64,000 bases of DNA, from positions 19,119,936-19,183,935 of the forward strand of contig CM068828.1 of the NCBI GenBank assembly GCA_028554795.2, written 5' to 3'. The notes under the pieces were generated by a model that was not told where the DNA came from, searched no databases, and saw only the letters and a list, made by a program, of their open reading frames with translations. How positions within the stretch are numbered: position 1 is the stretch's first letter; each line of letters opens with the position of its first letter. The DNA is from Sinohyriopsis cumingii (lineage: Eukaryota > Mollusca > Bivalvia > Unionida > Unionidae). Positions 1,915 through 64,000 of this stretch are shown here, one piece after another. The position numbers and the translations under genes are program-made.

Positions 1915-1915
<1 letters not shown>
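1..1915. other. Intergenic AT-rich DNA, no gene seen
   Basis: I find no ORF longer than about 95 codons, no conserved protein motif and no repeat structure here. The short ORFs look like chance openings. Confidence 0.6.

Positions 1916-2008
<93 letters not shown>
1916..2008. repeat. (TA)n microsatellite
   Basis: An uninterrupted TA dinucleotide tract of about 90 bp. The apparent ORF across it, rich in Tyr and Ile, is an artefact. Confidence 0.95.
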
Positions 2009-2009
<1 letters not shown>

Positions 2010-2765: not shown

Positions 2766-2773
2766 TATAAATA

Positions 2774-41137: not shown

Positions 41138-44100
41138 TTGTTTGCTACGGAAATATTAAGACGTATTAACAAATTAACCTGTGTCAAACCAGCATGCCCA
41201 AGATCTAATGCTGAGCTGAAAAAACTCGCAGAAACAGTGGTAGATATTGAACAACATAGAGAAATTTTTAAACATGAGCTTGATGAGATGAAAACCCGAA
41301 CAAATAATTATGAATTGCAAATAAAATGATCATCATTTATGGGTTTTAATAAAGTATATGTGTTTGAAAACACTAAATAAATCAGAATTAATTTTAATGA
41401 TCTACGTGAAACTATCAGGTTGGTTATTGAAACTGAAAGAGTTAATTCGCCAGCGCTCAAATTAGCAGGTCATTATGCAGCAACGCTCTTAAAGCAACTG
41501 ATCTAACAGTAACAGATGAAAGAGAATTTCGATCTGGTATACAAACAAGTAATCTCGATACTAAAAATATTGAAGAGATTTGTAATGAAATTTACCAGCA
41601 GATCTAAAAAATGAATCGACCAACATACTTCATACGGCTCTGGCTGGGTTTTAGATCGAATCAATGCTATTGTGGTTCCCACCCATAATTATACGCCGTT
41701 AACTGGTGGTACATTTATTGATTTCCCAGCAGCGGGTAAAAAGACTAAATCATGTCTCAGTGTCAAAAATGATGATAATAAGTGTGTTCAGTGAAGTCTA
41801 ATATTAGCATTATTTCCGGCAAGTGATAATGCCGATCGTGTTAGTAAATACCGACCTTATGAAGATCGAATAAACATAAATGGAAATCATTTCCCAACAC
41901 CAGTTAATCAGATAAAAAAAAATAGAAAAACAAAATACTGAGTTGTTTCCTGGTGGTATAAATGTGTTTTCGTTAAGTGATACAAACAAACCTTTTCCTG
42001 TTAAAATTTCGTCATTGGCAAAATGGTATGGTGATAAAACAATTAACCAACTGTTACATAAAAACATTATGTCTGCATTAAAAAAAAAGTTTAGTCTGTT
42101 CATCAATGGTAGCCTTAGCAATCATAATGGAAGTGTTTTTTTCTGTTACAACTGTTTTCATAAATTTCAAACTCAGAAAAAAACTGGATGAACACAATCT
42201 ATACTGTATTAAAGTACAAAAGATTGATGTCCCAAAAGGAGATAAAGCATTTTTACAGTTTGATAAACAAGAACGAAGCCAAAAAAAATGCCATTTGTGA
42301 TATACGGCAATTATGAATCGATTATTTTTCCAAAAAAGCCTCGTGGTGGTTGTAAAACCGACCATGTTCAAGAGCATGTGACAGTATCATACGCTCAGCA
42401 CAGTTTGTATTTATGACCGTTATTCCAAACGATCGGCCATTTACCGACTTGTCAATAATAATGTTGAGCCACCTCCTGTTCACATGTTAAAATATTTGTT
42501 TGAAGAAGAAGCCCGGATCAAGGAAATGTTACCGAATCCAGCTCCAGAACTTCCATTGACTGATGAAGAAAAAAAATATTACAAGAATATAAATGTCATA
42601 TCTGCAGTAAATTATTCATCACTGGAAAAAGAACAAAATATCGTTGTATTTTGTCAGGAAAGTTTCTCGGACCTGCGCATAAGTTCTGTAAAAACAAATA
42701 CTTTGCCAAAGGTAAACACAGAAGTTCATCCCGGTTGTATTCCATAACTTGCGCGGCAAAGATGGGCACTTTATTCTACAAGCGCTTGGTCATCCTGATA
42801 TTTAAAAATATTGCAACGAATGATTATTCTCATGCGTAAACGTTTGGAAAGAATTTGATTGTAAAACATTTGCTGATTATCATGATATTTATTTGTTGGT
42901 AGATGTGTTATTGCTCAGTGATATCTTTGAAAGTTTCAGAGAAACGAGTTTAAAGAATTATGAACTAAATCCGTGCGGGCATTTATCCGCACCAGGTCTC
43001 TCATGGGATGTATTAATGAAATTTTCCACAATTCGGCTCGAACTGTTAGAAGACCCTGACACGTATAAGTTCATTGGAAAAGGACTCCGTGGAGGTACTA
43101 GTGTGATAACAAAAAAAAATATGAACGAGCTAATAACAAAGATATGAAACAATTTGATGCTAGTTCATTAGATAAATGCATGATCTATCTCGATCCAAAA
43201 TAAATTGTATCGATATGCAAGAAATGCCGTATGGAAAGTTTTACTGGATTTCACCAGAACAGTTTGTTAAGGAAACATAAATTTTAAGTATGCCAATGGA
43301 TGATAAATTCAGTTATTTCTCTGAGGTTGATATTAATTATCCAGATTCATTGCATGATTTATATAACGATTATCCTTATCTCGCTGAATAAATGTTGATA
43401 ACTGACAACTTGTTATCAAAAGAGCAGTTAACTCTTCGTATAACAGGTAATTGCACTGTAGTTAATATAGTTCCAAATCTATTCAACAAACAAAATTATG
43501 TTTGCCTTTACAAAAATCTAAAACAAGCTATTGATGCTGGATTAATTATTGTAAAACTTCACCGCGTATTAAGGTTTAATCATTGTTGTTGGATGAAAGA
43601 CAACATTGATTCTAACACAGATCGGCATGCACAAGCAGCCACAGATTTCGAAAAAGACTTTTTCAAGCTGATGAATAATTCCGTATTTGGTAAGACCATG
43701 GAAAACATTAGAAACCGCATCAATATTGAGATTGTTAAACATTGGTGAAAAAGGTTAATAACATTAAAAAACACATTTGATGGTCTTATAAACATTTGTG
43801 AAAATCTTATATTAATCAAAAGAAAGAAAACCAACAAACCAATTTATATGGGTGCTTCCGTGTTAGATCTTTCAAAGTGGTTCATGTATGATTTTCATTA
43901 TGGTTTTGTGAAAAGAAACGTGCCTGAAGCACACTTATCGTTTACAGACACTGACTCATTAGTTTATGAGATTAAAGGTATTGGTTGTTCTGATTATGAT
44001 GTTTTCCGGGATATCTATGACAGCAGAGAAGTGTTTGATCTTTCAGCTGTTCCTCGCGATAACCCTTTCCATGATTCTGTAAACAAAAACGTTATTGGTA

Positions 44101-44445
44101 AGTTCAAAGATGAATTCAACTTCAGAATTGTTTCTGAATTTGTTAACCTTCGTAGTAAAATGTATGCATTATTCACTGATGATGGTGATGATAAAACAAA
44201 AAAGGCAAAAGGGTTAAATAATCATTATGTCAAAAAATAAAATGCGATTCAATAATTATAAGCAAGCTTTACATCGTCAATCAGGTGGAGAAATTGATTG
44301 TATAACCACAAGAGATTTTCGTTCGTATAAACATGTTATTGCAACCGATCAAATTACCCAAAGTGGTTTAAATAATTTTGACGACAAATGTAATTGTGTT
44401 GATGGTATAAATGCTTTTGCGTTGGGTCACTATTCAACAAAATGA
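41138..44445 (+). pseudogene. Decayed family-B DNA polymerase (Polinton/Maverick type)
   Basis: Collinear fragments in all plus frames form one polymerase. An N-terminal extension (SGWVLDRINAIV then NYTPLTGGTF, about 41640) is followed by VFFCYNCFHKF (zinc-finger-like, 42136) and the exonuclease motif region FVIYGNYESI (42290), where the usual Asp of the D-x-E motif reads Asn. Then come DIYLLVDVLLLSDIFESFRE with APGLSWD (42880-43010), a motif A region with IYLDPK (43185), motif B DFFKLMNNSVFGKTMEN (43650-43710), motif C FTDTDSLVYEI (43940) and a C-terminal RSYKHVIATD ... GHYSTK (44310-44445). At least eight frame changes or stops make it non-functional. In Polintons this enzyme is the protein-primed replicase. 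Confidence 0.87.
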
Positions 44446-47989: not shown

Positions 47990-49330
47990 GTAGAATAGCT
48001 TCAAGCCATAACACCACAACTTAAATGCTTTCTAACCGTTGTTAAAATGGCCATGAATTAAAAATATTAAATACACGTTTAGTCTCCAGAGGTGCAAGTT
48101 AGCTGTACATTCGGATACGCCGTACCGATAAGACATTTGTATTCCCGGTTTGGCCCTACCGGAAAGACTGTTACAGATAACTATTGATATTTACAGTGAA
48201 TTTTTAAATGCTGCTACTTTTGCCGCAAGCAAAAATGAATATTTTATAATAAAGAAATTGTTCTAATGAATTTCAGTTCCAGTTCCGACGAAAATCCAAA
48301 ATGGAAGGCGATGACGTAAACTGTAGCCAGTACAGTATTGACGTGTCAACAGTTCTTTGTTGTACCACAGGAAATATTATTCCATTGTTTGAATTCCGAA
48401 TATAATTTCAATAAATGTCTTTGTCCAATAATTTTGTACCAGCACTTAAATATTCCCTGGGAAAGAATTAATCTTTTAGAATCCAAATAATTTGAAGAAA
48501 AATTAAAATATGAAACTCCAATTGGTCACAACAGAAAACATACCACCTTGAAGTCTAATTGTTTAAAAGCCCAACTGAGATTATTTCTCAAAACATCCGT
48601 ATTAAACCTTACTACTGCGCAATTTTGGTAAAACCAGAATTTCGAAATAGAGGCTTTTACATGTAAAAAGTCACGTACACCAATCACAGCCTCGATTCCA
48701 CCCTAAATCCCATACTACGAATGAATGAAAAATAAAAAAGAAGTTGTTCACTTCAACTGTTACTAATTTTGAATCAGGGTCAGGAAGTAGGTCAGCATAA
48801 AGATGCCAAGTTCTATCATTATGGGTTTTTGAAAAAACAGTCAGGTCAAACTAACTTCTGGAAAATATCAAATTCCAGTAAACAAAATTAAATTACTATA
48901 ACATGGAATGGAATTTTTTAAAAATTAAACTAACAAACAAACAATTCAATTAAATCAAATATAAATTAAATCAAATATACATAATAATAGTTTAAAAGCA
49001 TGAACATGACGTTTTACTAAACAATAGTTACTAATGTTTCTACAGCATTCGAAATCAAATTATGTTATATCCTGAAGCCATTAACAAAGCAACAACTTGC
49101 ATCTTTGGCTCAAGAGTCGCAAATTTAACATGTATTTCTTTCCCAATTAAATAATTTGTCTTACTTCACAGTGTCACGAAATGCCCGATATGGCTCATTT
49201 AGTCTTCCATACTTTTCATTTAAATCAGGTTGTCTTGTTTCACGCGCCGTAATATTTCTGTAAATGTAATTTTTCGTCGTATCGCGTGACGCTTTTATTG
49301 CTCGCGCGGCACGTGCGAAATAATGTATTA
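47990..49330. other. Unique AT-rich DNA, no gene seen
   Basis: No ORF above background and no repeat structure. The left end of the second viral element may lie near the right border of this stretch. Confidence 0.45.
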
Positions 49331-49460: not shown

Positions 49461-50478
49461 CGAATGTTTTTTAGTCAACTCTTTTGATTATTTACAATAA
49501 TTATTCAGTTTCGTAAAAGTACGTCATCGTTGTATTATGTGGTCACATCGTTTATCGTATTTGCAATTCAGTTTATTAAGATATAACCTAGGCAATGTGG
49601 TAGCGAGTTAATTTCATCTAGTCGCTCTCACGACTAATTTCGAAAACATATTATGTATGTATTAATGTCACAGCATTACGTATATTTATTTTTATTGCAT
49701 AGCATTCCTATGTCATACTTCGTACCTATCGTATATTCTTAAAGTAGTTGCAACAAAACCCATTCCAATTAAACTAGACTATTGGAAAGGTACGTTTATT
49801 TTCCATATTCAGCTCGCCGGTTATGAGCAGCCGGATGGGCTTGTGGATACCATGACGTCTGGTGTTCCATTACTAGTATAACCCACCAACTCAGTGCCAA
49901 CGTACGGGTACAAGTGCGGAGTTGAAAGTGACCGTGCCAGAGAGAAGGCCGTGTCAACATGTATTTTCCAATCAAGTAGTGTTTTGACTACAAGTAAAGC
50001 ACAATAACAAGTAGTGTATTGACTACAAGTAAAGCACAATAACAAGTAGTGGTTTGACTACATGTGAATTATGACAGTAGTGTCTGACTACATAAATGTT
50101 TGCAACCAGTAGTTGATTATATAGGTTTGCAACAAGCATTTGTTTATATGAAAGTTTGCTAGAGATATTTGTATACATGAAGTTTATATGGAGTTGTTAG
50201 AACTTTTTGACTACATGAATGTGACATAGTAGTCAAAGTATATTTCATATGTGTTTTATATTCATTTTATATGCTTTTCTGTTATTTTCATATCATTAGT
50301 AGCAGCAGAGAGGGTGAACAGACCACTTAAGGGAGTTGTCACCCTTGTGTTTGGACCAAAAAAAAAATAGTGACCCTTCATAGAGGTCAATACCACGTCT
50401 ACGATTATTGTTTGTCTCCAAAATAATTGTAGACAAGGCCCATCTGCTGCTATAATTAAATCATTATGTTATAATAAA
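49461..50478. other. Non-coding 5' region of the virion cassette, with short repeats
   Basis: Three copies of a unit of about 40 bp (GTAGTGTTTTGACTACAAGT, AAAGCACAATAACAA) lie at 49973-50070. Otherwise AT-rich with no gene. Confidence 0.55.
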
Positions 50479-51636
50479 ATGGTACATCCGGAATCTCATA
50501 CTGCAAGAATAGCTCGAGAACGATTAGAAGCAATTAAAAAATTTCTTCCTGTTAGAGATTCATTTAGAAAAAATCTACAAGCGCAGTAAGAAGCACAAGT
50601 TGAGTACGAAGAAGACATTGAAAAACTATTTAAACCCGTTACTGCAGCTACTGAGAAAGTTACAACAGTCATCAAGGAAGATCTTCTTCCGGTATCAAAA
50701 CAAACTGCAGCGCAGACTGAAAAAATAGCAGCGAGAACTAAAAAAACAAAAAGGATTTTACGAGACCTTCCAACTAACATAGCTGCAGCTCAACCTCCAC
50801 CTGTCGGTGAAGAAATACTTGAAAGTATTGAAAAACTTCGTACTGAAGTCGCCGACGTGAGAAAAAAACATGCATCTGAATCCAAACCAGTAGGAGAAAA
50901 TTTAGAATTGATTGCAAGATTTAACGAAGGGGTTGTTGAAGATATTAGAAATACTGAAAGAGAAAAATTACCTGAAATGATATTATCTGGTATATTTAAT
51001 AAATCTGGTATTTTAAAAACTCGTCATGAAAAAGTAAATAATGATAATCTCATTAGATGGATATATCGCGTATATTACAACAAAAAACAAGCTAGAGGTT
51101 CAGAATACGACAGTCTTAGTAGAGAAGTAAAAAGACTTTATAGAGAGAGACTGGAACAACTAGAACAAGAACAACTCTCTCAGTATCAACTTCCTCCACC
51201 TCTGCAACAAATAGAACAACAACAATCTTCTTCACCGCAGGAAGAGATGATGTTGAAATCACCTATGGAGAAAATAAAACAGGTGGCGAGAGAAGTAAAG
51301 CAAAGAATGAAGAAAGGATTGAGAAAAACTAAACAGAGGGGGGAATTACGTTCACTGGGTGAAGAAAGAGATCCTGACGATGATCCTCCTGGCGCTGTAG
51401 GAAGTGGTTTTTTGACTGCATCAGGAGAAAATAATTTTGTTTGTCCTAATAATATCATCAATGACGTGTCACGGTTAGAAGTTCTTATAGGGGGAAAACG
51501 TGCAGGAAATAACTCAACAGAAATAACCAATGAAATATCTGATATTTGTCGAAGATTATTTCAAGGTGGTATTATGGATCGCAGCATTTATCGTTCACTT
51601 ATTGATGAAATTGCTGATGATTATCACAGCGACTAA
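50479..51636 (+). pseudogene. Coiled-coil structural protein of the virus-like element, one nonsense codon
   Basis: The frame starts with ATG at 50479 (MVHPESHTARIARERLEAIK) and runs 385 codons, except for a TAA at 50587-50589 (codon 37). Content: a helical N-terminus, long Ala/Thr/Lys-rich coiled-coil segments (residues 45-130), a charged central part (GIFNKSGILKTRHEKVNNDN, residues 170-190), a Gln-rich region (240-260) and a basic tail. No family is recognised. Its position as first gene of the virion cassette suggests a scaffold or virion protein. The downstream 260 codons could be made separately from an internal start, but the nonsense codon more likely marks decay. Confidence 0.55.
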
Positions 51637-51661
51637 ACAATTAATCAATCAGTATATAAAA

Positions 51662-52096
51662 ATGATTATACATACTGCTCAACGTAGACCGATCATGGTC
51701 AGGGTAGTAAACTCACGACTGCCAAATTACAAAGTAATTTACGGAGATGGACTTGGTGATGTTATTCAGGGTTTATTTAGAAGGATGGCTCCAAAAGCAA
51801 TACCGATTGCAAAACAATTAGGTATGAAGGCTATTGAGGCTATTCGTGAAAAAGCTCCTGGTGCAATTGTCAATGTTGCTGGTAAGGCGTTCTCGGCGAT
51901 CAAAGATAGACTAGCACGATTAATAAGACGAAAACAACAACCACCAGTGAAACTGGCAAGTACTGAGGTTATGCCAGCAAATGTCAGTAAAATAATAAAT
52001 CAAGCCGCAAATCAAAAACTAGCGGAATTATCTGAAGAAGCAGAAAGAAATATAACAGCGAATTTAATAGCAGGAAGCGGTCTTCGTCGACGATGA
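51662..52096 (+). CDS. Small basic minor virion protein (pVI/pX-like)
   Basis: Start at ATG 51662 (MIIHTAQRRPIMVRVVNSRL). The frame is open further upstream but only through the previous gene. It is 144 residues and strongly basic. GDGLGDVIQGLFRRMAPKAI, an amphipathic/hydrophobic helix region and Ala-rich helices follow, ending GSGLRRR. Gly-Leu motifs with Arg/Lys-rich helices recall adenovirus-like core or membrane-lytic minor proteins found in Polinton virion cassettes. That comparison is by style, not by alignment. Its stop overlaps the ATG of the capsid gene (ATGA at 52093), typical of compact viral genomes. Confidence 0.55.
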   Translation: MIIHTAQRRPIMVRVVNSRLPNYKVIYGDGLGDVIQGLFRRMAPKAIPIAKQLGMKAIEAIREKAPGAIVNVAGKAFSAIKDRLARLIRRKQQPPVKLASTEVMPANVSKIINQAANQKLAELSEEAERNITANLIAGSGLRRR

Positions 52097-53583
52097 TTAC
52101 CATTTGGAAAAATGGTAATTACAATAAAATGTTTAAACGCATGTCCGACCCAGCATTTGACATGGATGCACCGGTCCTCAAAGATGAATCAGTGCGTGAT
52201 TATCAATTTTATTCCTATGACGCAAGACAGCCAAATCAGCGGGGGAGAATCGAATTACAGGTTCATGATACAAGTAGATATTTCTTGCCCGCTGAGGCGT
52301 TTATTGAGGTAGAAGATAGACTTGTAACAAATGTTGTAGCTAATACGCCATATGGTGCCAATTTGCGTGTTGGTTTTGTCAACAACGGGATTATGGCACT
52401 GTTTTGATAGCGCCACATACATGATTGATGGAAAAAATATTGAATCAATTCAGAAGGATGTCGATGTTGCTACAACAATAATTGGTCTAGCCTGATATTC
52501 TGATGATTACACAAGATCAGCCGGTCCAACAATGATGTTTGGCAAGGATATTACTGACAGCGCTGATCATATCCGGTATGCTAAAAAATACGAACACCAG
52601 CAGGTACTGCATCTGATCCACAACCAGTTGCTGATGGTCCTGAATACGCAGCCAGACCAGCTGCTGCTTTTGATATTGTACGAGGCGATAGCACGACTTT
52701 CAACCTAGGATTTGCAACACGCCAAGCAGCGTTGTCGGGAGATAATAGAAATTTTTCATGTGCAATTCCATTATCTCACATTTTTGGATTTTGCAGAAAT
52801 GTCAGAAAGGTTATCTTCGGAGCTAAACACACAATTGTGCTCGTAAGAAAAGGTGATGATAATGATGCAATCTGGCGAGGTGCTGGTGTTGCTGATGGTA
52901 AAGTAAATATATCAAAGCTTTCATTGTGGATGCCAGTAATGATTCCATCTATTATTGAAGAACAAAAATTACTTTCTTTTATGGATCAAGGCGGTAAATC
53001 ATTGATATCATGGTTAACAGTAACCACAGATGCTATTCAAAGCTCTGTTAATGGCTTATTTACATGGAATATAGCATCACAACAGGGTGTTTCTGCACCA
53101 CGACATATTTTTATTGCGCTGCAAGATAATGCTCGGACGAGTAATCAAGAACGTTCACATATGATATTTGACAACCTTTGAGTTAATGAAGTTTCCTTGC
53201 GGATAAATGGACATCAAGAACCGGCTGAGGATATATTGTTAAATTTTGATCAAAATCACGTAGCGCGTGCATATCATCGTTTGATGTCATTCATGGGACG
53301 TGATCAAAATGTAGATACTGGGCTGCAAATATCACAGTTAGATTTTACAAAACTATATCAGATTTATTACTTTTCGTTGGAACATCTTGATTTATCCAAA
53401 CAATCTGTAGTTGATATACACTTTCGAGCTCGTGTCACTAACCCTCCTCCTGATATAGCTGGTCCACCACTTGTTCGCGGCGCCTACAAAGCAATCGCGG
53501 TTATTCTCAGCGATAATGGCATGTTACTTGAAGGTGGTAGTGGTCGAATGAGAGTCGTTGATGCACCAGTGGAAAATCTTTAA
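52093..53583 (+). pseudogene. Major capsid protein-like gene (double jelly-roll type), four breaks
   Basis: Reading from ATG 52093 (alternative ATG 52132) gives an N-terminal part with DMDAPVLKDESV and DTSRYFLPAEAF. The frame is lost at the T-run at 52402-52405, continues in another frame to a TGA at 52493-52495, then shifts again at an A-run near 52587. The remaining frame has IPLSHIFGFCRNVRKVIFGA, KHTIVLVRKGDDNDAIW and LSLWMPVMIPS. A TGA at 53179-53181 follows, then HVARAYHRLMSFMG and SVVDIHFRAR to 53583. These phrases match a large invertebrate family of Polinton-like capsid proteins. Two nonsense and two frameshift changes mean this copy cannot make the full protein as sequenced; the A/T-run indels might be sequencing errors. 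Confidence 0.72.
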
Positions 53584-53617
53584 TCGTGTTATTTAAAAAC
53601 ACGAGTATTATCATAAA

Positions 53618-54059
53618 ATGCCATATCAACACGTTAGTGTCAGTCTGACTCACGGTCAGATTAAAAACCTTCAATCAAATTCAGCAAAAAACTGCGGAAT
53701 GAAAATATCACTAAAGCGAGATCAGATCACGGGTGGTCAAAATAAGCTATCATTATCAGAACGCCAGCTTAAACATTTCAACGACGCTAAACAATAAAAA
53801 ACAGGCGTCAAACTCAATCTCTCTGATGGTGCTGTTAAAGACTCAATTAAAACAGGCGGTATTTTTCCACTCCTCGCGGCTATTCCAGCGTTAATAGCTG
53901 CTGCCGCGCCAGCCATAGCAAAAGCAGCCGCGTTAGGTGCTGTTGGAACAGCTGCTGGAACGGCTCTAAAGAAAGCAACAGGGCAAGGATACAAAAAAAG
54001 GACGCGGCTTAAGATTGCCAGGATCTCGTTGGGGAAGAGGTCTAAGACTTCCACGTTAG
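53618..54059 (+). pseudogene. Small hydrophobic/Gly-Leu minor virion protein (pX-like), broken
   Basis: ATG 53618 begins MPYQHVSVSLTHGQIKNLQS. A TAA interrupts at codon 56 (about 53783-53785). The frame then gives TGGIFPLLAAIPALIAAAA, an Ala-rich hydrophobic helix. At an A7 run near 53993-53999 the expected basic tail with GRGLRLPGSRW and GRGLRLPR, ending at TAG 54057-54059, lies in the next frame. Gly-Leu repeats and a hydrophobic helix are the signature of adenovirus pX-like proteins in Polinton-type cassettes. The position directly before the protease also fits. Confidence 0.55.
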
Positions 54060-54496
54060 ACGTTCCAGTATCAAATTTTGATTTACTTGATGCCGCTAAA
54101 CGATTAAAAATATCTGCCTTTAGAGGTGTTTTCATGCGAGATCAATTACCAAAACAACCAAACAAACTCGAAACAGGTATTATTAATCTCGACGAACGTT
54201 CCGGACCTGGTACTCATTGGGTATCATACGCGGTTGATCCACGTGGAATCGTTTATTTTGATTCATACGGGTTAGCTCCGCCTGTTGAATTTATCAAGTA
54301 TGTTGCACCACTTCACGCGCAAGTTTGGTATTCAACGCTACCCACACAAACAGTGACAGATCCGCCAATATGTGGCCGTGAAGTAATTAGTGTACTTGAC
54401 GCTATATCAAAATCATCCAGGCCGCCACATAAAGTCGTGCATGATTATACAAGCAACCGATTCGTTTTAAACAACAGGTCTTATTATAATGGTTGA
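54060..54496 (+). CDS. Adenain-type cysteine protease (virion maturation protease)
   Basis: Open frame with FDLLDAAKRLKISAFRGVFM, then GPGTHWVSYAV (catalytic His), VYFDSYGLAPP (Asp) and TLPTQTVTDPPICGREV (Gln and the nucleophile Cys in CG). The order His, Asp, Gln, Cys is that of the adenovirus/Ulp1 C48/C5 clan. In known relatives it cleaves capsid precursors. About 140 residues is normal for the Polinton form. There is no ATG before residue 35 of the homologous part. The same frame is shared with the upstream pX-like gene, so the start could be non-AUG, spliced, or reached by frameshift. The CG is followed by REV instead of the usual aromatic/Cys residues, which is unusual. The stop overlaps the next gene's start. 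Confidence 0.78.
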
Positions 54497-55499
54497 TATT
54501 TACGGAAGATCTTCCTCACGTGTTAAGAAAAAGCCCGGCGACGTTGATCTATCAAAGTACGCGACTAAGGATGACCTCGCTGATATTATGAACCTGGCTG
54601 AAGTTGACCCAGATGAGGTTGTTATTTTTCAGGATCGACATGGTAAACTAAAAAGCAGCAATATCAAATGGAATGATATAATTCGACGAGTACTTGGTGC
54701 AGTTACGGATAATATACCCGTGTTTACTGACAGCGGCAGAATCAGGGATTCAAGTATATCGTTTACAACCATCAGAAATCAAATTACGGCAGCTGCTGAT
54801 AATCGCGTAAAAAATACCGGTGACACAATGACAGGTGAACTTAGCATGAACGGAAATAAAATAGTAGTTTTAGGAGATCCAACATCCGGTGAAGATGCTG
54901 CAACGAAAAATTATGTTGACACCGTAGATAATAAATTATCCACGTTGCGAGCCGAGCATGATGTTCACGTAGGCGCTTTTGGAAGATTTCGAAGAAATTT
55001 TCAAAAAACCGACGAATCCATAGATAAATTCTTCGGCACTCCGCACGCCGTTGACATGAAACTCGTTGATATCAAAACTAACCTAGACACGATCAAACAA
55101 ACACAGCAAAACATCGTGGCGGGAATTCCTGAAATCGTTAATAAAACCAATTTGATTAAAATCTCAGCCGGAATAACTTCCGGGCATATTACCAACATCG
55201 TATGCACGGTATCATCGGGATTTGCGACATGGTCGCAGCAAAACAATACTATCAAATATACTGCAACAGTCACTGGCGTGTACAGGCTGTCTGTGTTTAG
55301 TGCTGCAAAATTTGAAATATTTACAACGTATCCATGGCGTCATTCAACTGATAAGTTTTCCGGGGTTGTATCTGTCATATTAAATAACGGAACCGAGGAA
55401 ATATTTATTCTGGAAGCAGCTGATAAGAAATTAACCGCAACATCCTTCTGGTGGTGTTTGGAATTTGTAGCTGAAACACCTCAATTGGTTACGGCATAA
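54489..55499 (+). CDS. Fiber-like / tail-spike-like protein (336 aa)
   Basis: A complete frame from ATG 54489, overlapping the protease stop. The N-terminus (MVDIYGRSSSRVKKKPGDVD) is basic and could anchor to the capsid. Residues about 110-150 contain NTGDTMTGELSMNGNKI followed by LGDPTSGEDAATKNYVD, the repeat typical of trimeric phage tail fibers and of fiber genes in Polinton-like viruses. A helical stalk follows (residues 150-220), and the C-terminal 120 residues are beta-rich with aromatic residues, a plausible head domain for attachment. Membership in this fiber repeat family is directly visible; receptor binding is inferred. Confidence 0.78.
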   Translation: MVDIYGRSSSRVKKKPGDVDLSKYATKDDLADIMNLAEVDPDEVVIFQDRHGKLKSSNIKWNDIIRRVLGAVTDNIPVFTDSGRIRDSSISFTTIRNQITAAADNRVKNTGDTMTGELSMNGNKIVVLGDPTSGEDAATKNYVDTVDNKLSTLRAEHDVHVGAFGRFRRNFQKTDESIDKFFGTPHAVDMKLVDIKTNLDTIKQTQQNIVAGIPEIVNKTNLIKISAGITSGHITNIVCTVSSGFATWSQQNNTIKYTATVTGVYRLSVFSAAKFEIFTTYPWRHSTDKFSGVVSVILNNGTEEIFILEAADKKLTATSFWWCLEFVAETPQLVTA

Positions 55500-55505
55500 A
55501 ATATA

Positions 55506-56042
55506 ATGAATGCTATCGACGTTCAAGGATTTAGGTACAATCAAGCGCGTGAATGGCAGGCAGCGTTGAAAGATCGAGTCGAACAATATACAGCAAAAAT
55601 AGAAAAGTATCAACGACGATTAGTTATCATCGACGTTGTTGTTTATTCGGTATCCGCTGTTGTTGCCGGAAGCGGAATAATATTATCCGCGGTAACAATG
55701 ATGGCACCAGTAGCTGTGACTAGTTGTGTTTGTGCAACTACGACAATTGCAGGTGTGCTTAATATCGTTGCAAAAAAGATATGTACTTGCACGAATGAAA
55801 AATTATCCGATTACAAGATAAAATTACACACAGCAACTGTCGCATACACGAGGTTATCCTCGTTGTTATCAGCGAGTCTCAATGATGGAATTATATCCGA
55901 TTTTGAGTTTTCGATGATGATCAGCGTATACAATTGCGCTGGTATTGAAGGCACGAGTATCAATAATGACGGAATTACTGCAGCAGATCGTGACAAACAC
56001 AACCCCGCACAAGACCACGATGATCTCGCTAAGCTCGATTAA
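55506..56042 (+). CDS. Two-helix membrane protein of the virion cassette (178 aa)
   Basis: The N-terminal amphipathic helix (REWQAALKDRVEQYTAKIEK) precedes two hydrophobic segments: residues about 40-63 (VVVYSVSAVVAGSGIILSAV) and about 70-92 (VAVTSCVCATTTIAGVLNIV). A cytoplasmic-type helical domain follows, ending in DGIISDFEFSMMI. This layout of coiled-coil, helical hairpin and coiled-coil is common for an unnamed small membrane protein in Polinton-like elements and is reminiscent of SLATT-fold proteins. It starts 7 nt after the fiber gene, and its end overlaps the penton-like gene by 23 nt. Role unknown. Confidence 0.62.
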   Translation: MNAIDVQGFRYNQAREWQAALKDRVEQYTAKIEKYQRRLVIIDVVVYSVSAVVAGSGIILSAVTMMAPVAVTSCVCATTTIAGVLNIVAKKICTCTNEKLSDYKIKLHTATVAYTRLSSLLSASLNDGIISDFEFSMMISVYNCAGIEGTSINNDGITAADRDKHNPAQDHDDLAKLD

Positions 56043-57392
56043 TCCTGAATTTGACATCAATTTTCCAACAGCAATTCGCGCGAATGAAATTGCACTAGCA
56101 CAATTACGAGTATATTACAGCTGGCCAAACATCAGATCGAGATCATTTAATGGTACACCAGCAAATAATTCGCTCGTATTTGCTGATAAAAACAAACCCG
56201 ATGGAACACCTGACTGGGTTGTTGTTGGAATACCAACTGGTAGTTATGAGGTCGAACAAATCAATGATGAATTTGCTCGTAGAATAAAATCAATAACAGG
56301 AAAAGAAGCAAAAATATCAATTAATGTTCATGAGCCGACGCTGTCCTCGACGATTGAAATAAACTCTCCTGATTACGTCGTTGATATTTATCAGTCCACG
56401 ATAAGATCCGTACTAGGTTGGCCTGATATTGCGCCAGTGTATGAAGGACCACCAGAACCAAAATTAATTGATTTTATCACTGACAATGCCGGGTTTATAA
56501 CAACTCCAAAATACCGAAATTTGTATCCATGGACTGGTAGGGATTTTCGTCTTATTCGTGGTGATGGAAAATATTATCCTATGACACCGTTTTCTATCAT
56601 TGATTTTGATGTGAAAACATCAACTAATATTGTTTTTGAAAGACATTTCAGATTACATGCTAACAGAATTAGAACTGAATACACAACTACATTAACGACA
56701 CTAGCACAGTTGTTTAAAAACTATATCCTGGAGTATCCTAATGACGATCTAAGACATCAGATCATTCCAACGATACAACATTTAAATCAAATTGTATTGG
56801 ATCTTAAACATTTTAATCAGACCATTATTGAGGTAATAAATGCTAATAATTATATAGATAATGGAGCAAAAAATAGTATCAACAAGCATACATTGATCAT
56901 TATAAAATAACTGAAGCAGATTTATTAAATTTTACACTACCAGGATTTGAAACTGGCGAATTGATAAGATCACTTAATGATCTGGTCGCGAAAAACTTTT
57001 CTGAAATACTAGCTGTGTGGAAAAAAATAGCCCCACCAGCAACTGTTCTTAGATATGATAATGATCCACTCGGCGGCGGGAGACACATATCTCCGGGAAT
57101 CGTTAATATAACGTCGACGGTCGCGGTTAATCTAGTTTGTGACGTAATCGAAGGCAGTTATCAAATAGATCTTGGAAAATCAAATCAGGCTCAACAAGGA
57201 TACATCCTATACACGTTCACACCACAAGTTCCCCCTGGCGATTTGATCGTACAAGTACCAACCAATCCTGTTTATCTACGCACACATAATCAGCATTTGT
57301 CACGAATAAATTTTAAACTCACAGACCACCTTAATCGCTTAATTGACCTACGTGGAGAAGAGCTTGTAATAAATCTGTATGTGAAATCGTAG
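56020..57392 (+). pseudogene. Penton-like minor capsid protein, one frameshift
   Basis: Preferred start ATG 56020 (MISLSSINPEFDINFPTAIR); an in-frame ATG at 55966 is possible. The first part contains ALAQLRVYYSWPNIRSRSF, then WVVVGIPTGSYEVEQINDEF and IRSVLGWPDI, and stops at 56910. A second frame (from about 56880 to 57392) resumes with IDHYKITEADLLNFTLPGF, then HISPGIVNITS, VPTNPVYLRTHNQHLS and RGEELVINLYVK. The two halves correspond to one protein of about 455 residues. They are separated by a single frameshift between an A6 run at about 56866-56871 and 56890. The family accompanies the capsid protein in Polinton-like cassettes and is thought to be the single-jelly-roll penton. Confidence 0.68.
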
Positions 57393-57443
57393 ATCTTTGA
57401 TCAAGAATCTTCGATTCTAAATTAATCCAATAAATATTATATA

Positions 57444-57713
57444 ATGTACCAGCACGTGAGGGTTTTTATACATGACAAAGAAGCACTTGAAAACACCATC
57501 AGAACAGCGTTTTCACAAAACATGGAGCAATTTAACGTTAATTTAGTTATTGATGAATACGGAAGTGAGGATTTCTTATTAACGCATGAACAGTTGGATG
57601 AGCTCCGTCAAAAACATATTATCGAGATCATTTGTAGCAGAAATCAGATTCTAAATTATGCACATTCCTGCATTAAAGTTGATCAACTTAAAAAAATATT
57701 CCAGAATGAATAA
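57444..57713 (+). CDS. Small unidentified ORF at the end of the virion cassette (89 aa)
   Basis: Complete frame beginning MYQHVRVFIHDKEALENTIR, with a mixed alpha/beta composition, an acidic middle (DEYGSEDFLL) and a C-terminal helix ending KIFQNE. It starts 51 nt after the penton-like gene on the same strand and is the last gene before the large palindrome, so it is probably cotranscribed. No family recognised. Confidence 0.5.
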   Translation: MYQHVRVFIHDKEALENTIRTAFSQNMEQFNVNLVIDEYGSEDFLLTHEQLDELRQKHIIEIICSRNQILNYAHSCIKVDQLKKIFQNE

Positions 57714-57738
57714 AATAAGGAGCTGATTAAGAAATCAG

Positions 57739-58031
57739 AAATATTTCAACATTTGTTATTTTTTTCAGCTATTTTAGTCGATTTGTCAAGGAAAATTTGT
57801 CAAATTAGTTTTTCGTCGGGTCAAACCTCAAGCGGTTCTCTAATTGATTTATCGATAAATCGTCAAAAATCAGTAAAATTAACAAAAATCGCATGAAAAA
57901 TCTAATTTTTTGAGCTAATTTTACTGATTTTTGACGATTTATCGATAAATCAATTAGAGAACCGCTTGAGGTTTGACCCTGATGATGTTGGAAAATTCAT
58001 CAATTTTCACTGACAAATGTTGAAATATTTT
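57739..58031. repeat. 293-bp palindrome with perfect 64-bp arms
   Basis: Left arm 57818-57881 and right arm 57916-57979 are exact reverse complements (64 of 64) around a 34-nt centre. The arm begins GGGTCAAACCTCAAGCGG, and an ATTTATCGATAAAT self-palindrome lies inside it. Outside, AAATATTTCAACATTTGT (57739-57756) pairs with ACAAATGTTGAAATATTT (58014-58031), with mismatched sequence between. It separates the plus-strand virion cassette from the minus-strand genes. It may be a bidirectional transcription terminator, a replication hairpin, or joined terminal repeats of a linear genome. Confidence 0.93.
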
Positions 58032-58039
58032 ATTTTTTT

Positions 58040-58990
58040 TCTGATTTTACATAAATCTGAGTACCAACAGTTATAAATTGCATAAATCTGAGTACCAACA
58101 GTTATAAATTGCATAAATCTGAGTACCAAGAGTTATAAATAAAATAATAATTCAAAAATAAATAAGTTGTAAAATTAAGAAATTTGTACAATTTTGTAAA
58201 TTTGATGGGGTAAATGGTAGTCAAAATTAAGAAATTTGTACAATTTCGTAAATTTGATGGGGTAAATGGTAGTCAAAATTAAGAACTTTGTACAATTTTG
58301 TTGTATTTTGTGAAATAATTAAGAAATTCTTCATTTTGATGGGGTAAATGGTAGTCAAAATTAAGAAATTTGTACAATTTTATGTTTTTGATGGGGTAAA
58401 TGGTAGTCAAAATTAAGAAATTTGTACAATTTTGTTAAATTTCAGTAAAAAAAAACAAATTAATTCAGTAAATAAATAAATTCAGAAATAAATAATAAAT
58501 CTGAGTACCAAGTAGCCCATCAAAATTATGAATAAATAATAATTCAGAAAAAATAAATAATAATTCAGAAATAAATAATAAATCTGAGTACCAAGTAGCC
58601 CATCAAAATTATGAATAAATAATAATAATTCAGAAAAAATACATAATAATTCAGAAAAAATAAATAAATAAATAATAAATCTGAGTACCAACAGTTATAA
58701 ATTGCATAAATCTGAGTACCAACTAGCCCATCAAATTCAGAAATAAATAATAATTCAGAAATAAATAATAATTCAGAAATAAATAATAAATCTGAGTACC
58801 AACAGTTATAAATTGCATAAATCTGAGTACCAACTAGCCCATCAAATTCAGAAATAAATAATAATTCAGAAATAAATAATAAATCTGAGTACCAACTCAC
58901 CCATCAGAGTTATAAATTGCATAAATCTGAGTACCAACTCACCCATCAAAATTGCAAATTGCATGAATCTAAGTAGCAACTAACCCATCA
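58040..58990. repeat. AT-rich repeat block with two unit types
   Basis: Unit one (ATAAATCTGAGTACCAAC with AGTTATAAATTGC) recurs at 58060-58140 and 58676-58980. Unit two (GATGGGGTAAATGGTAGTCA with AAATTAAGAAATTTGTACAA) recurs five times at 58203-58440. AATTCAGAAATAAATAAT spacers fill 58460-58870. Apparent minus-strand ORFs rich in LLFISEL are artefacts. Confidence 0.88.
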
Positions 58991-58996
58991 AAGATC

Positions 58997-59398
58997 TTAG
59001 TCATCTTCATCGGAATTACTACTTTGGATCGTTTCACCAACTAGGTTACTCGCTAACATAATTTTTCTTAATAGTCTTATGCGAGTACTAATTGTTTTCT
59101 TTTCCTCGTACTCGTGGGATAACAGCGATCTAATTTTTTCCACTGCGGCAGAGAGAGGAACGAATTCCTTCACCTGATTATCTTCTACGGTAGCTAGCGA
59201 CTGAAACATTGCCGCCTGAATCCGTTTCATGAGCTTATATTCAGATGATAGTGTGTGTATTCCTTGGTTTTTACGTTCTTGTAAAATCTCAAAATCAGAA
59301 ACTATTTTTTCAGGATTTAGTTCATTAGATATATTAATTCCATCTTTTTCCAATTTTTTAATAGCAGAAATAATGTCTTCGATATTTTCATGGTTCAT
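58997..59398 (-). CDS. Helical acidic-tailed protein, unidentified (133 aa)
   Basis: Complete frame from Met 59398: NHENIEDIISAIKKLEKDGI, a central helical region with EYKLMKRIQAAMFQSL, and a C-terminus ending SSNSDEDD. No domain recognised. It is the first of three minus-strand genes between the palindrome and the polymerase. Its mostly helical, charged make-up could suit a DNA-binding or scaffold role, but that is a guess. The frame is intact, unlike several neighbours. Confidence 0.52.
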   Translation of the reverse strand: MNHENIEDIISAIKKLEKDGINISNELNPEKIVSDFEILQERKNQGIHTLSSEYKLMKRIQAAMFQSLATVEDNQVKEFVPLSAAVEKIRSLLSHEYEEKKTISTRIRLLRKIMLASNLVGETIQSSNSDEDD

Positions 59399-59454
59399 TA
59401 TATAATATATAAATCTTTAAAATAAAAAAAGTATCCCTACAGAACCCCTATCGA

Positions 59455-59800
59455 GTGTTTAGCGAGTTCGTCGGGATGTTTCAAGGACAGCACAAACATA
59501 TATTATGAAATGTGAACCTCTATTCGAGTCTTTTAGCAGGTTTAAGTATGCAATGAACGAAAGACAGTACAGCCAAGAACTCGTAGATTGCCATCGCATT
59601 CTACCAAGTTCACCAGGCACACGAAATATTCCTTCTACGAGAGCTTCTAACCCGTCAAACAACGGTCTAGAGGCCCAAGAAGGGGGACGGCACAAACATA
59701 TATTATGAATGAAGAGCCCCTATCGAGTCTTTAGCGAGCTCAGATTATGCAATGAATGACGACACAAACATATATTATGAATGAACCTCTATCAGGTTTA
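59455..59800. repeat. Three imperfect repeats, about 110-180 bp apart
   Basis: CACAAACATATATTATGAA followed by CCTCTAT or CCCCTATCGAGTCTTTAGC recurs near 59492, 59692 and 59764. They are probably duplicated non-coding segments of the element. A (GAAT)n stretch follows to 59858. Confidence 0.7.
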
Positions 59801-59867
59801 GTAAATATGTAATGAGATGTAATGAATGAATGAATGTAATGAATGAATGAATGAAATGAGGCCATTT

Positions 59868-59974
59868 TCTCCGCTGTCAGAACACCCACCCACCAAATAA
59901 TCAACCCGTGGGAAAATACAAAAACATGTATCTACCACGTTTGACATGGTAGGATGGTGTTCTGACAGCGGAGA
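59868..59974. repeat. 19-bp perfect inverted repeat
   Basis: TCTCCGCTGTCAGAACACC (59868-59886) is exactly complementary to GGTGTTCTGACAGCGGAGA (59956-59974), around a 69-nt loop. It adjoins a tRNA-like sequence at 60045-60112. Confidence 0.85.
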
Positions 59975-60044
59975 GGGGGTGGCGGTGCCCCAATTAATTA
60001 TAAAAATCGCAATTATGCGTACACCACCGACAAGTTGTCAGCCA

Positions 60045-60112
60045 TGGGGATTCGATCCTGGACCGCGAGCGTCACAGTCCAATTCGATACGGATTGAGCT
60101 ATCAAATCTTAT
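60045..60112 (-). other. tRNA-like sequence (SINE or pol III remnant)
   Basis: On the minus strand TAGCTCAATCCGT (A-box-like) is followed about 35 nt later by GGATCGAATCCCC (B-box-like). The D arm and anticodon arm do not pair well, so it is not a functional tRNA. With the adjoining inverted repeat it may be a SINE or composite insertion of about 250 bp. Confidence 0.5.
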
Positions 60113-60560
60113 TACAAACATATGTTTCGGAAGTTAATATATAGCTACAGCATTTCTGAATTAAAACAGCGGAATAGTTTCTACATTTAAATAACTGTTT
60201 CTACATCAAAATAACGGTTTCTGAATATAACAGCGTTTTTCGTAACAGACTGTAAATACAAACCTGCGTGCAGAATACACCTGCATATCGATTTGTGCAT
60301 AACAACGGTTTGTAAATGCAGCATATACAGCTACTTGCGGATCAATAACAACGGTCAAGTTACCTCAGTTTCTCGCTATGTTGTTTGATGGGAAATTTCT
60401 ATTTTGTAAGTTAGAAACCATAAATATACTTCTACGAGTAATTACGACGTAAATGGTTAATCTGACCATAAAAATCGGAAATTTACGAAGAAAACTATAT
60501 ATTACAAAGTAATCTCCCTTTTGCATAATTAAAAATTCAGTAGTATAAGGGGGACATACA
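60113..60560. other. Non-coding DNA, no gene seen
   Basis: Short phrases such as ACAGCGG and GTTTCTACAT recur around 60165-60230. Nothing else stands out. Confidence 0.45.
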
Positions 60561-60564
60561 GCGA

Positions 60565-61017
60565 CTAATATAATTCAATGTGGTGATGATACTGAAAGGT
60601 GATTTTCTGCTTATATTTCTTTGAGAAAGTAGATTTGGTTATATTTTCTGCGACGTATTTTACCGCACGCGAGTTAATATCAAAATATTTCGCAGCCACG
60701 TTCATAGACTGAAATATAATTTCTTTGCCAGTTTCTGTGTTTGTAGCCTTGATCAGCCTTCTAGAAACTGTCTTACATCTTCCAGTATTACCACGCGCAG
60801 AGTTCACGCTTTGTGTGACAACACGAAGGTTAAATAAGGAGTTGTTCTGAGGATTCCCGTCAATATGATCAATAACAAAACCATTTTCGATCAATCCGTT
60901 ATGACACTCATACGTAAATCTATGACACAGATAATGTTTCTTTCCAGCAGTAAACATTAGATAACCAGTATTAATGACAAAACCAACCGGTCTTTTAAGC
61001 ATACAATTTCTGATCAT
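60565..61017 (-). CDS. HNH endonuclease (homing-endonuclease type, 150 aa)
   Basis: Complete frame. The core shows LCHRFTYECHNGLI then VIDHIDGNPQNNSLFNLRVV, the classic H-N-H arrangement (His in CHRF, then DHIDGN..NN...NLR) of HNH nucleases found in phages and large DNA viruses. A C-terminal segment (SMNVAAKYFDINSRAVKYVA) resembles a NUMOD-type helix-turn-helix that reads DNA. Such enzymes make double-strand breaks and often spread as free-standing homing genes. Here the gene lies between replication genes of a virus-like element. Independent mobility is inferred. The frame is intact. Confidence 0.84.
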   Translation of the reverse strand: MIRNCMLKRPVGFVINTGYLMFTAGKKHYLCHRFTYECHNGLIENGFVIDHIDGNPQNNSLFNLRVVTQSVNSARGNTGRCKTVSRRLIKATNTETGKEIIFQSMNVAAKYFDINSRAVKYVAENITKSTFSKKYKQKITFQYHHHIELY

Positions 61018-61103
61018 ACCGTAAATATTTGATTCGTAGTTGTTACGACAGGATGTGGGATAAATATATTTTGCTCCATATATGATAATATTATTTGTTT
61101 AAA

Positions 61104-61400
61104 TCATTGTTTGTCTGAAAACTTAGTTAGATAATCCTCCACGGATTTTATAGCATTTTCACTATTATTATTTTTTTTGTCATAATATCTTTTAAGCTCT
61201 CTGAACCGTTTTCCCCCGCACTTTCCACATAATTTTGTTTTTTCTCGCACTCCAGTACCACATCGCAGACATGGTATTGGTCCTGAGCTTCCACGGTTAA
61301 CGCACTGCATGTGTTGTCCGCAGAACTCCTTTTTACAGGATTTATTACAACGAGTTAATGAACCCACCATGAGCCATCTGCATTGAGACATTGTATACAT
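61104..61400 (-). CDS. Small zinc-binding protein (98 aa)
   Basis: MYTMSQCRWLM begins the frame. Two Cys/His clusters follow: C-x10-C-x3-C-x4-C-x2-H (CRW...RCNKSCKKEFCGQH, residues 7-30), and CLRCG ... LCGKCGG (residues 44-62, two CxxC knuckles). A basic helix (KRFRELKRYYDKKN) ends the protein. Short proteins with the first pattern are common in large DNA viruses. It is divergently arranged 35 nt from the polymerase-helicase gene, suggesting a shared early promoter and a role in replication or transcription. That role is inferred. Confidence 0.65.
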   Translation of the reverse strand: MYTMSQCRWLMVGSLTRCNKSCKKEFCGQHMQCVNRGSSGPIPCLRCGTGVREKTKLCGKCGGKRFRELKRYYDKKNNNSENAIKSVEDYLTKFSDKQ

Positions 61401-61435
61401 AATATTTTAATTTAAATACTTGTCTGAAATATAGT
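61401..61435. promoter_or_regulatory. Divergent intergenic region between zinc protein and polymerase
   Basis: Only 35 nt separate the two start codons. The AT-rich sequence (AATATTTTAATTTAAATA) is likely a compact bidirectional promoter, but no initiator can be pinpointed. Confidence 0.4.
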
Positions 61436-64000
61436 ATGAACGAATTCGATAGATTATCCCGAATAAAGCCCTGGAGAGTGGATAAATTCAACCTCGACAG
61501 AATATCTCCAGACTTACCAGTACGAGATCTGGTTGATCCGAAAAATAAAAGTTTGATTAATAAAATTCACGACGCCAAGAAAGAATTTCACACAGATGGT
61601 GCATCTCATGTCTGGTCAACGTTCAAGATTATACGCAAGGGCGCCATTAACGCTATGATGTACGACAAACGAGCAGCAATTATCATTAACTATCTTGATA
61701 ATCGCAAGTATCTTTTCAGAATAAAATTCGTCGTGTTGACAGAAACAAATGATTGGATTATCCGTGACAAATATGATCCTGTCCACGGTAATAAAAAAAC
61801 TGTCGTACTAAGTAAAGATTCCAAACCAGGTCTATTGACAGGTATTGACAAACCGTATTATGAAAGAGCATATCCTGTGACCGCGGTTATTTATGGAATC
61901 TATGTGATGAATGAAAAACCTAGCGCTGATAAACTAGCGCCGATGAAATTTTCAAAAATAAATTGTGTAGCTGAACGAGTAACAGAACATTTTACCGTTT
62001 TGACTCGTGGAAACGGTCTAACGGATAAGAGACGTAAAATAATAAACACGTGGGGAGAAATGGTTAAAGATACTGGTGCATCTATCAAAGATGTCGCTGA
62101 GTTAGGAAAAAGATTAAAATTTCCAATAACCGTGGCGACGATAACAGGAGAGATTTTGTATGAATCAAAATATAGATCAAAAGGAGCTTCGATCGAAATT
62201 ATTGATCATAACGCACACGCGTGGACTAACGCAGTAACAATATTTCCACGAGATCGAACTGTTAAATGTTATCCCGGAGGCATGTTTGATTTTATTAACG
62301 AAATAAGTAAAAACGATCCCGTGTCAGTATGGTTATTTCAGTCTTGCGTGGAAGAAAATAATCAATTTGATCAGATTGTGAGACCAAATGGTGCTATTTA
62401 TCGAACAAATCCTCTTCACGAGAAAATGAAAAATCTTGCACTGCAATACACTGATGACACCGACGAATTATTGAGCAACTGCTTTACTGTTCCGTCAGTT
62501 GCGGCTCATTTTGCTAGAAAGAAAAATTCGTGGAAACCAACTCGGTTTGATTTTCTCGATGACATAGTATCCAGTTGTGTCGAATATGGACACGGCGGAC
62601 TATGGAATACTAAATACGATCATAGAGATGTTATTTCAGTTGATATGGTTGCGTGTTATCCGGGAAGTTTTCTTGGATATGGAGATTGTTCTGTGTATTT
62701 TGAGCGATTCGGTCATCCGACGCACGAAATGACGCGAGTATCGATAAATGGACCATTACCGGATTTTGACCTGACTGGATTTGCTCGTATCGAGTCATTC
62801 GAAATGTCTAAAGGACTCCATGCAATTTGTTATGTTTGGTTTGGAAAACATTTTCCAGAAAAAATGTGGACACCAATAGTACTATTACGATATATGCTTG
62901 ATTGCACGATGTTAATATCGCTGACGATCAGCGAAGCAATTATATCATATCGAAAACAAACCGAAGTTTGGTTACCACATTCGAATGAAACCGATTCGAA
63001 GGATCTTGGTAGAAAAATAATTGGCAAATTTACCCAAGGAGCAGCATATGATCACAGACAACATTGTACAAGATTGATCATGGACGACGCTGAGTTAGAT
63101 TTTATAATCGCTGATACAACGAACAAGAACACGTTTGTAAGTCGAGAAACAGCTTTCTTGTCAAATGGAAATAAACTAGGCACCATTGTGAACTACATGG
63201 ACGGTGAGTCACCTCAGTATACTCATTTAAGATCATCGATGCTCGCGTATGTTTCAATAAATCTATTATCGATGATAAATATGGTTTCTACGCATGCCGT
63301 CAGAGTTGCTACTGATTCGTTTTATATAAGTAAAAACATTCAATACAGTTAGAAAAATTAAACATAGGCACTTATGCATCGTGGGGTTCGTGGAGAATAA
63401 AAAAGGAATATACGCTCGATTATTCCGAATCCGCTGATGTTGCGGTTAAAGATATTTACTGTAAAAAATATCAAACGTTGACAACTCCGTTGTTACCATC
63501 GGTATACGATCCAATAACTAGACACAAAACGGTTTATCTAAATGGACCTGGCGGCAGTGATAAAACTACTCGAGCTATCGAACTATTTCAGAACTCGGAT
63601 ATGATCGTGCTAACACCCACACATAGACTCGCGCGAGAGATGAAACAACGCGGTGTTAATTCCTGTACTTATCACAGCTTTTTTCGATGGAAGGGTGATA
63701 CATGGACATCTTTAAGGATGGGCGAGAAATACATTCCAAGGATTATAATATGGGATGAAATATGCACTGTACCGCTAGAAACATTAAAAACATTTCTTGA
63801 TTGGTTGTTAACAAGAAATACCGCTGTGATAATGTGCGGCGATCACGGTCAACCACCACCTGTAGCTGGACCATCTCCACATGATTGGCTGAAAAATTTC
63901 GTTGATCACGCTGAAGAAATAACTGATGATCATAGAGCACTTGATGCAGCGTTGAAGGAATTTAAAAAATTAATCAGACTACAACCGAATAAAATTCAAT
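61436..64000 (+). pseudogene. PolB-like DNA polymerase fused to SF1 helicase, one frameshift, runs off the window
   Basis: ATG 61436 opens 638 codons. Residues 1-390 form an unfamiliar N-terminal region. Polymerase-like motifs follow: VISVDMVACYPGSF (motif A, about residue 400), KIIGKFTQGA in place of the canonical motif B (about 527), and AVRVATDSFYI (motif C, about 623). A frameshift near 63335-63350 ends the frame. The next frame continues openly to 64000 with NGPGGSDKTTRAIEL (Walker A, with Asp where Gly should precede Lys), VLTPTHRLAREM, IIIWDEIC (Walker B) and VIMCGDHGQPPP (motif III): a superfamily 1 Pif1/RecD-like helicase. From memory, a similar single-protein fusion occurs in many copies in the fungus Rhizophagus and scattered invertebrates. 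It is probably the replicase of this element. Confidence 0.74.

What the first reader, a model, noticed from the sequence alone, without database searches (positions are those of the whole stretch)
50479..64000. Virus-like element combining a Polinton-type virion cassette with an unusual PolB-SF1 helicase fusion
Seen: a compact collinear plus-strand set (coiled-coil, pVI-like, capsid, pX-like, adenain-type protease, fiber-like, membrane, penton-like) and, 4-6 kb away, a polymerase-like ORF with motifs A and C followed in the next frame by SF1 helicase motifs. Known: classical Polintons carry a protein-primed PolB without a C-terminal SF1 helicase, usually with an integrase and an FtsK-like ATPase, neither of which is visible here. 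The fused replicase resembles, from memory, a lineage known mainly from fungal genomes. The combination may define an undescribed lineage of Polinton-like viruses.
Basis: partly seen in the sequence, partly recalled or inferred. Interest (0 to 1): 0.87.

Follow-up and report, generated by a model that had tools for sequence, protein, structure and literature searches.

The report
Polinton-like provirus with polymerase–helicase replicase
A damaged 17-kilobase virus-like element in a large, probably molluscan, genome holds, between one pair of terminal repeats, capsid, packaging and integrase genes plus a polymerase and a helicase that are one fused gene in its relatives; this replicase type is known from viruses of single-celled organisms, so the element likely marks an overlooked lineage of animal viruses.

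Summary
It runs from window 50301 to 3,428 bp past the window's end (17,128 bp), bounded by 153-bp terminal inverted repeats (152 of 153 identical) with TTAGT on both outer flanks.

The replicase ORF folds like phi29-type protein-primed polymerase behind an OTU-protease-like domain and leads into an SF1 helicase with an HNH end. In 52 of 119 retrieved relatives, palm motif A and Walker A lie in one frame. This is the Tlr1-like (pPolB-S1H) architecture of ciliate Tlr1, Polinton-like viruses and transpovirons; profile comparison found no likeness to the resident Polinton polymerases.

New here: a probably animal host and a Polinton-style virion cassette. Named relatives come from mussels, sea slugs, a coral and mycorrhizal fungi. 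This copy's capsid, penton-position and replicase genes are frame-broken. Copy number and synteny elsewhere are untested: the genome search stayed unreachable. Verdict: a new variant of a known kind, plausibly an undescribed lineage.

The parts
50296..50300 (.). TTAGT, also found at L009:3429-3433 outside the right repeat: likely target-site duplication
   Evidence: equal 5-mers expected in 0.13% of random pairs from these flanks
50301..50453 (+). left terminal inverted repeat (right copy L009:3276-3428, beyond the window)
   Evidence: 152 of 153 identical, begins AG; no other full copy in the window or the 12 loci held
50857..51636 (+).
   Evidence: no Pfam match above cut-off
51530..52096 (+). 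ORF 188 aa, 'pVI-like' by position (untested label)
   Evidence: no family
52093..53583 (+). major capsid gene, broken by stops and frame changes; piece 52732-53178 matches DJR-like_dom PF21738
   Evidence: E 1.7e-15; stops and frames
53618..54028 (+). pX-like hydrophobic stretch (by eye), one in-frame stop, then open into the protease ORF
   Evidence: label recalled, not tested
54029..54496 (+). adenain/Ulp1-type cysteine protease ORF, 155 aa
   Evidence: Peptidase_C5 E 0.0014, below cut-off; S273R E 4.9e-4
54489..55499 (+). fiber-like ORF, 336 aa
   Evidence: Phage_T7_tail E 0.0014, below cut-off
55506..56042 (+). ORF 178 aa with hydrophobic segments (by eye)
55945..57392 (+). penton-position gene, split into two frames here (55945-56910, 56961-57392); one ORF in relative P0042
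   Evidence: 18 relatives; both halves match P0042; penton fold untested
57444..57713 (+). ORF 89 aa, unknown
58050..58992 (.). A+T-rich tandem repeats between cassette and replication genes
58997..59398 (-). ORF 133 aa, unknown
60565..61017 (-). HNH endonuclease ORF
   Evidence: HNH_3 E 3e-14
61104..61400 (-). cysteine-rich, zinc-ribbon-like protein; paralogue at L009:2942-3274
   Evidence: 34% over 100 aa, E 2.5e-19
61436..63352 (+). replicase, N-terminal part: OTU-like domain (residues about 162-268) and protein-primed PolB palm
63478..64000 (+). replicase, SF1 helicase part; the frame runs on to L009:788 with UvrD_C_2-like and HNH-like ends
50301..64000 (.). part of the element inside the window; beyond it, on L009: integrase 808-1740 (-), PLA2 1737-2204 (-), ATPase 2259-2903 (+), cysteine-rich protein 2942-3274 (+), right repeat 3276-3428

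Best explanation
The stretch is a single integrated, now damaged, Polinton-like element, probably of an animal, that likely copied its linear DNA with a protein-primed polymerase joined to an SF1 helicase, packaged it in a double-jelly-roll capsid and inserted it with a retroviral-type integrase. Shown: one 17.1-kb unit with terminal inverted repeats and a flanking 5-bp repeat; rve integrase, Pox_A32-type ATPase, DJR capsid fragment, PLA2 domain, SF1 helicase; a phi29-like palm in the predicted model; polymerase and helicase in one frame in relatives. Inferred: the N-terminal domain primes DNA synthesis as a terminal protein; the OTU-like domain cuts it off; the helicase opens the duplex ahead of a polymerase without proofreading; the ATPase fills the capsid; the adenain-type protease matures it; PLA2 helps the particle leave the endosome; the HNH parts are homing endonucleases riding along. 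This copy is likely not autonomous, because its capsid, penton-position and replicase genes are broken.
Confidence: 0.85

Rival explanations
1. Two elements lie side by side: an ordinary Polinton cassette and a separate polymerase-helicase transposon, each inserted on its own.
For: A tandem-repeat stretch lies between them (58050-58992), and the cassette is broken while integrase and ATPase frames are open.
Against: One pair of 153-bp terminal repeats encloses both, with no further full repeat copy inside. Potamilus and Sinanodonta each have relatives of both modules.
Confidence: 0.04
2. A Maverick-Polinton of animals took over a Tlr1-like replicase from another virus fairly recently: a chimera, not an old separate lineage.
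For: The cassette order, protease, rve integrase and ATPase are Polinton-style.
Against: No blastp match (E <= 0.01) between the cassette ORFs and ORFs of one resident Polinton and its L009 neighbour; integrase 27-31% and ATPase 31% only; no PF21738 match in eight resident ORFs scanned; the integrase has no chromodomain match. Only one or two resident elements were compared, and which resident ORF is the capsid was not tested.
Confidence: 0.25
3. Contamination: the stretch comes from a fungus, symbiont or free virus assembled into the genome.
For: Relatives occur in fungi and in bacterial MAGs.
Against: It lies inside a 156-Mb contig with terminal repeats and a flanking 5-bp repeat; the named penton-position relatives are unionid mussels.
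Confidence: 0.03

Closest known systems
Tlr1 element of Tetrahymena and Tlr1-like helicases (pPolB-S1H) of Polinton-like viruses and transpovirons
   Same: Protein-primed palm after an OTU-like domain, fused C-terminal SF1 helicase, first Asp of motif C replaced, HNH at the C terminus in some; Tlr1 also has rve integrase, ATPase, capsid and penton (PMC11071308 passages; PMC4028283 passages)
   Different: Here the host is probably an animal, and protease-like and PLA2 genes are present; the passages say Tlr lacks the adenovirus-like protease
Maverick-Polintons / adintoviruses
   Same: Virion cassette style, rve integrase, packaging ATPase, terminal repeats, DJR capsid
   Different: Replicase without PF03175 match and with SF1 helicase; no chromodomain match in the integrase; only remote similarity to the resident Polinton
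OmPLV Helicase SF1-pPolB of Oxyrrhis marina
   Same: SF1 helicase fused to protein-primed PolB
   Different: Reverse order (helicase N-terminal), full exonuclease, no rve integrase (PMC12721341 passages)
Mavirus polymerase
   Same: First viral fold match; TP-vOTU-palm layout without most of the exonuclease (PMC11071308 passage)
   Different: Separate SF3 helicase instead of a fused SF1 helicase (same passage)
Fungal (Glomeromycotina) relatives P0099, P0112, P0120 and others
   Same: Same replicase family, 52% (P0099) over the helicase part of P0008
   Different: A separate group in the tree; whether they carry a capsid is untested

Membership tests
Tlr1-like helicase (pPolB-S1H) | Protein-primed PolB palm | tested here: met
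Tlr1-like helicase (pPolB-S1H) | OTU-like domain before the palm with Cys and His | tested here: inconclusive
Tlr1-like helicase (pPolB-S1H) | SF1 helicase C-terminal in the same protein | tested here: met
   52 of 119 relatives by motif; in this copy a frame change lies between
Tlr1-like helicase (pPolB-S1H) | First Asp of motif C (DTD) replaced | tested here: met
   ATDS in the window ORF; 0 of 83 readable relatives keep it
Tlr1-like helicase (pPolB-S1H) | No exonuclease domain | tested here: inconclusive
   model 269-638 aligns to phi29 50-469, so a remnant is not excluded
Tlr1-like helicase (pPolB-S1H) | C-terminal HNH or GIY-YIG (in some members) | tested here: inconclusive
   HNH E 0.0067, below cut-off; HNH pattern in 37 of 119 relatives
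Maverick-Polinton | pPolB of the Polinton type | tested here: not met
   no Pfam match at E <= 1; no profile match to eight resident pPolB frames
Maverick-Polinton | rve integrase | tested here: met
   E 3.7e-8, above cut-off
Maverick-Polinton | FtsK/A32-type packaging ATPase | tested here: met
   Pox_A32 E 5.9e-12
Maverick-Polinton | DJR major capsid protein | tested here: met
   PF21738 E 1.7e-15 on one of three pieces
Maverick-Polinton | Single-jelly-roll minor capsid (penton) | not tested
   position only; no Pfam match above cut-off, fold not predicted
Maverick-Polinton | Adenain-type protease | tested here: inconclusive
   below cut-off in Pfam; S273R E 4.9e-4
Maverick-Polinton | Terminal inverted repeats with short target duplication | tested here: met
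   153 bp, 152 identical; TTAGT both sides; 6 bp is the size I recall for Polintons, here 5
Adintovirus | Integrase with C-terminal chromodomain (PMC11071296 passage) | tested here: not met
   no Chromo match at E <= 0.5; a resident Polinton integrase has one, E 1.2e-7
Adintovirus | Hexon recognisable by BLASTp to adintovirus hexons | not tested
   no named adintovirus hexon was at hand

The most novel reading that the evidence does not exclude
A separate lineage of integrating viruses of animals and mycorrhizal fungi, replicating with a pPolB-SF1-HNH fusion instead of the Polinton polymerase, has lived beside ordinary Polintons in animal genomes and gone unrecognised because its polymerase has no Pfam match.
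Probability: 0.6. Interest if true: 0.72.

Novelty: new variant of a known kind. Interest (0 to 1): 0.6.

Why it matters
The pPolB-S1H replicase is used to trace the origin of Polinton-like viruses and transpovirons, and the passages read place it in elements of protists and giant-virus associates. Finding it in probable animal hosts and in Glomeromycotina, here with a protease-bearing Polinton-style cassette, would widen its host range and show why such elements are missed: the palm has no Pfam match at E <= 1. One genome then holds two polymerase solutions, with and without a fused helicase, which makes the proposed trade-off between proofreading and helicase testable.

Tried and rejected
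Tried without result. (1) IMG/VR scans with the replicase (P0001; alignment A3) gave 5 and 19 pattern matches, none a relative; the scans use a few short peptide patterns, so absence is weak. The same for P0135 and P0137, the integrase and the capsid piece. (2) The bacterial/archaeal genome scan gave one 3,152-bp contig in a Diapherotrites MAG (L010); not pursued. (3) hhalign of the replicase family against eight resident pPolB frames: nothing. (4) Folding P0008: low confidence. (5) The own-genome search with the replicase ORF was sent 30 times and never answered, so copy number, intact copies and synteny in this genome are unknown. (6) The 2016 fusion paper (PMC5499653) and the adintovirus paper (PMC8502044) are not held.

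Rejected: two separate insertions (one pair of terminal repeats); an element without integrase or ATPase (both just past the edge); [quoted passage not shown]
Full report
What is there. The window is bases 19,119,936-19,183,935 of contig C5 (156 Mb) of an unnamed 2.9-Gb genome. Reading on past the window edge (L009) shows that the finding is the larger part of one element. Comparing the two flanks as separate sequences gave a 153-bp inverted repeat, window 50301-50453 against L009:3276-3428, identical at 152 positions, beginning AG, with TTAGT on both outer sides. Equal 5-mers are expected in 0.13% of random pairs from these flanks.

Missing genes found. Beyond the edge lie: the rest of the helicase with UvrD_C_2 (E 0.0012) and HNH (E 0.0067) matches, both below Pfam's cut-off; an rve integrase on the minus strand (E 3.7e-8); a phospholipase A2 domain (PF08398, E 1.4e-13); a Pox_A32-type ATPase (E 5.9e-12); and a cysteine-rich protein. 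The last is a paralogue of the one at 61104-61400 (34% over 100 aa, E 2.5e-19). A stand-alone HNH_3 endonuclease sits at 60565-61017 (E 3e-14).

Virion cassette. One of three capsid pieces matches PF21738 (DJR-like_dom, E 1.7e-15). The protease matches Peptidase_C5 below cut-off (E 0.0014) and ASFV S273R (E 4.9e-4). The penton-position gene has 18 relatives; the named ones are in Potamilus streckersoni and Sinanodonta woodiana. The same two species also have replicase relatives (P0041, P0014), though linkage there was not tested.

Relatives. A search with the window ORF gave 41 proteins, and one with the helicase part of P0008 gave 89, of which 78 were new. In a 48-row tree (quick method, SH-aLRT only) the window pairs with P0001 (99) inside a 6-row set that includes Sinanodonta (100); seven fungal rows form one set (100); a 27-row set (99) holds the coral, Elysia crispata and Thiodiazotropha-MAG rows; P0134 and P0135, on 15-kb contigs, lie outside. 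Long branches and uneven composition were flagged, so deep branching is unsure.

Compared with resident Polintons. The genome has many ordinary ones: 150 PF03175 matches from 75 scored candidates, a lower bound. ORFs from the surroundings of one of them (L011, L012) and from a neighbouring element on L009 match this element only in integrase (27-31%) and ATPase (31%) at E <= 0.01. None of eight such ORFs scanned matches PF21738, and a resident integrase has a chromodomain that this one lacks; which resident ORF is the capsid was not tested. Profile comparison of the two polymerases found nothing. So the element does not look like a recent variant of the resident Polintons, but only one or two of them were compared.

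State of this copy. The capsid gene has several stops and apparent frame changes; the penton-position gene is split into two frames where P0042 has one; the replicase is split once. Integrase, ATPase and PLA2 frames are open. The terminal repeats differ at one base, so the insertion is probably not very old, or the repeats were kept alike.

How it most likely works. Shown: gene content, repeats and predicted folds. Inferred from the named families: protein-primed replication of a linear genome, release of the priming domain by the OTU-like domain, unwinding by the fused helicase, packaging by the ATPase, maturation by the protease, endosome exit by PLA2, and integration by the rve integrase.

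What is known. Passages of PMC11071308 describe Tlr1-like helicases as TP-vOTU-palm-S1H proteins of Polinton-like viruses and transpovirons, with the first Asp of motif C replaced and C-terminal GIY-YIG or HNH domains in some. This element fits that layout. Tlr carries rve integrase, ATPase, capsid and penton but no adenovirus-like protease (PMC4028283 passages). The Oxyrrhis fusion has the reverse order and a full exonuclease (PMC12721341 passages). PMC10120064 passages say that cnidarian capsids were the only animal ones outside the Maverick-Polinton cluster, and that helicases fused to an unknown domain were often seen in protist elements. Passages of PMC7805220, PMC10328495, PMC11071296 and PMC4642659 were also seen. 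In the listings of nine literature searches (titles and abstract openings) I saw no paper announcing this combination in an animal. The library holds open-licence papers only, and the 2016 paper on the fusion could not be read.

Verdict.

Noticed in passing
L009:5197-9500 (minus strand), beyond the window: A second, ordinary-looking Polinton lies a few kb away: rve integrase at 8945-9421 (E 2.1e-10) and ORFs resembling those of another resident element.
   Followed up: partly
window 42893-44240 (+): Degraded reading frames with polymerase-like motifs, among them FTDTDSLVYEI with the first Asp kept: by eye the remains of another PolB-type element without SF1 helicase; the 43848-44240 ORF has no Pfam match at E <= 0.01.
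   Followed up: partly
window 40496-40769 (-): A fragment about 40-46% identical to the element's cysteine-rich protein (tblastn E 6.9e-9), outside the element.
   Followed up: no
window 48255-48984 and L009:4026-4701: Sequences outside the element that form an inverted repeat with each other at about 80% identity, so the element may have landed inside an older palindromic repeat.
   Followed up: no
window 21742-23430 (-): An intact 562-aa ORF with Cys-rich N terminus and no Pfam or NCBIfam match at E <= 0.01.
   Followed up: partly
window 16904-18592 (+): Long ORFs made of a repeated unit of about 26 residues, open in two frames: a tandem-repeat array.
   Followed up: no
L009:808-1740 (-): The element's integrase scores better against NCBIfam IS481 transposase (E 4.6e-16, far below its cut-off) than against Pfam rve (E 3.7e-8).
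   Followed up: no
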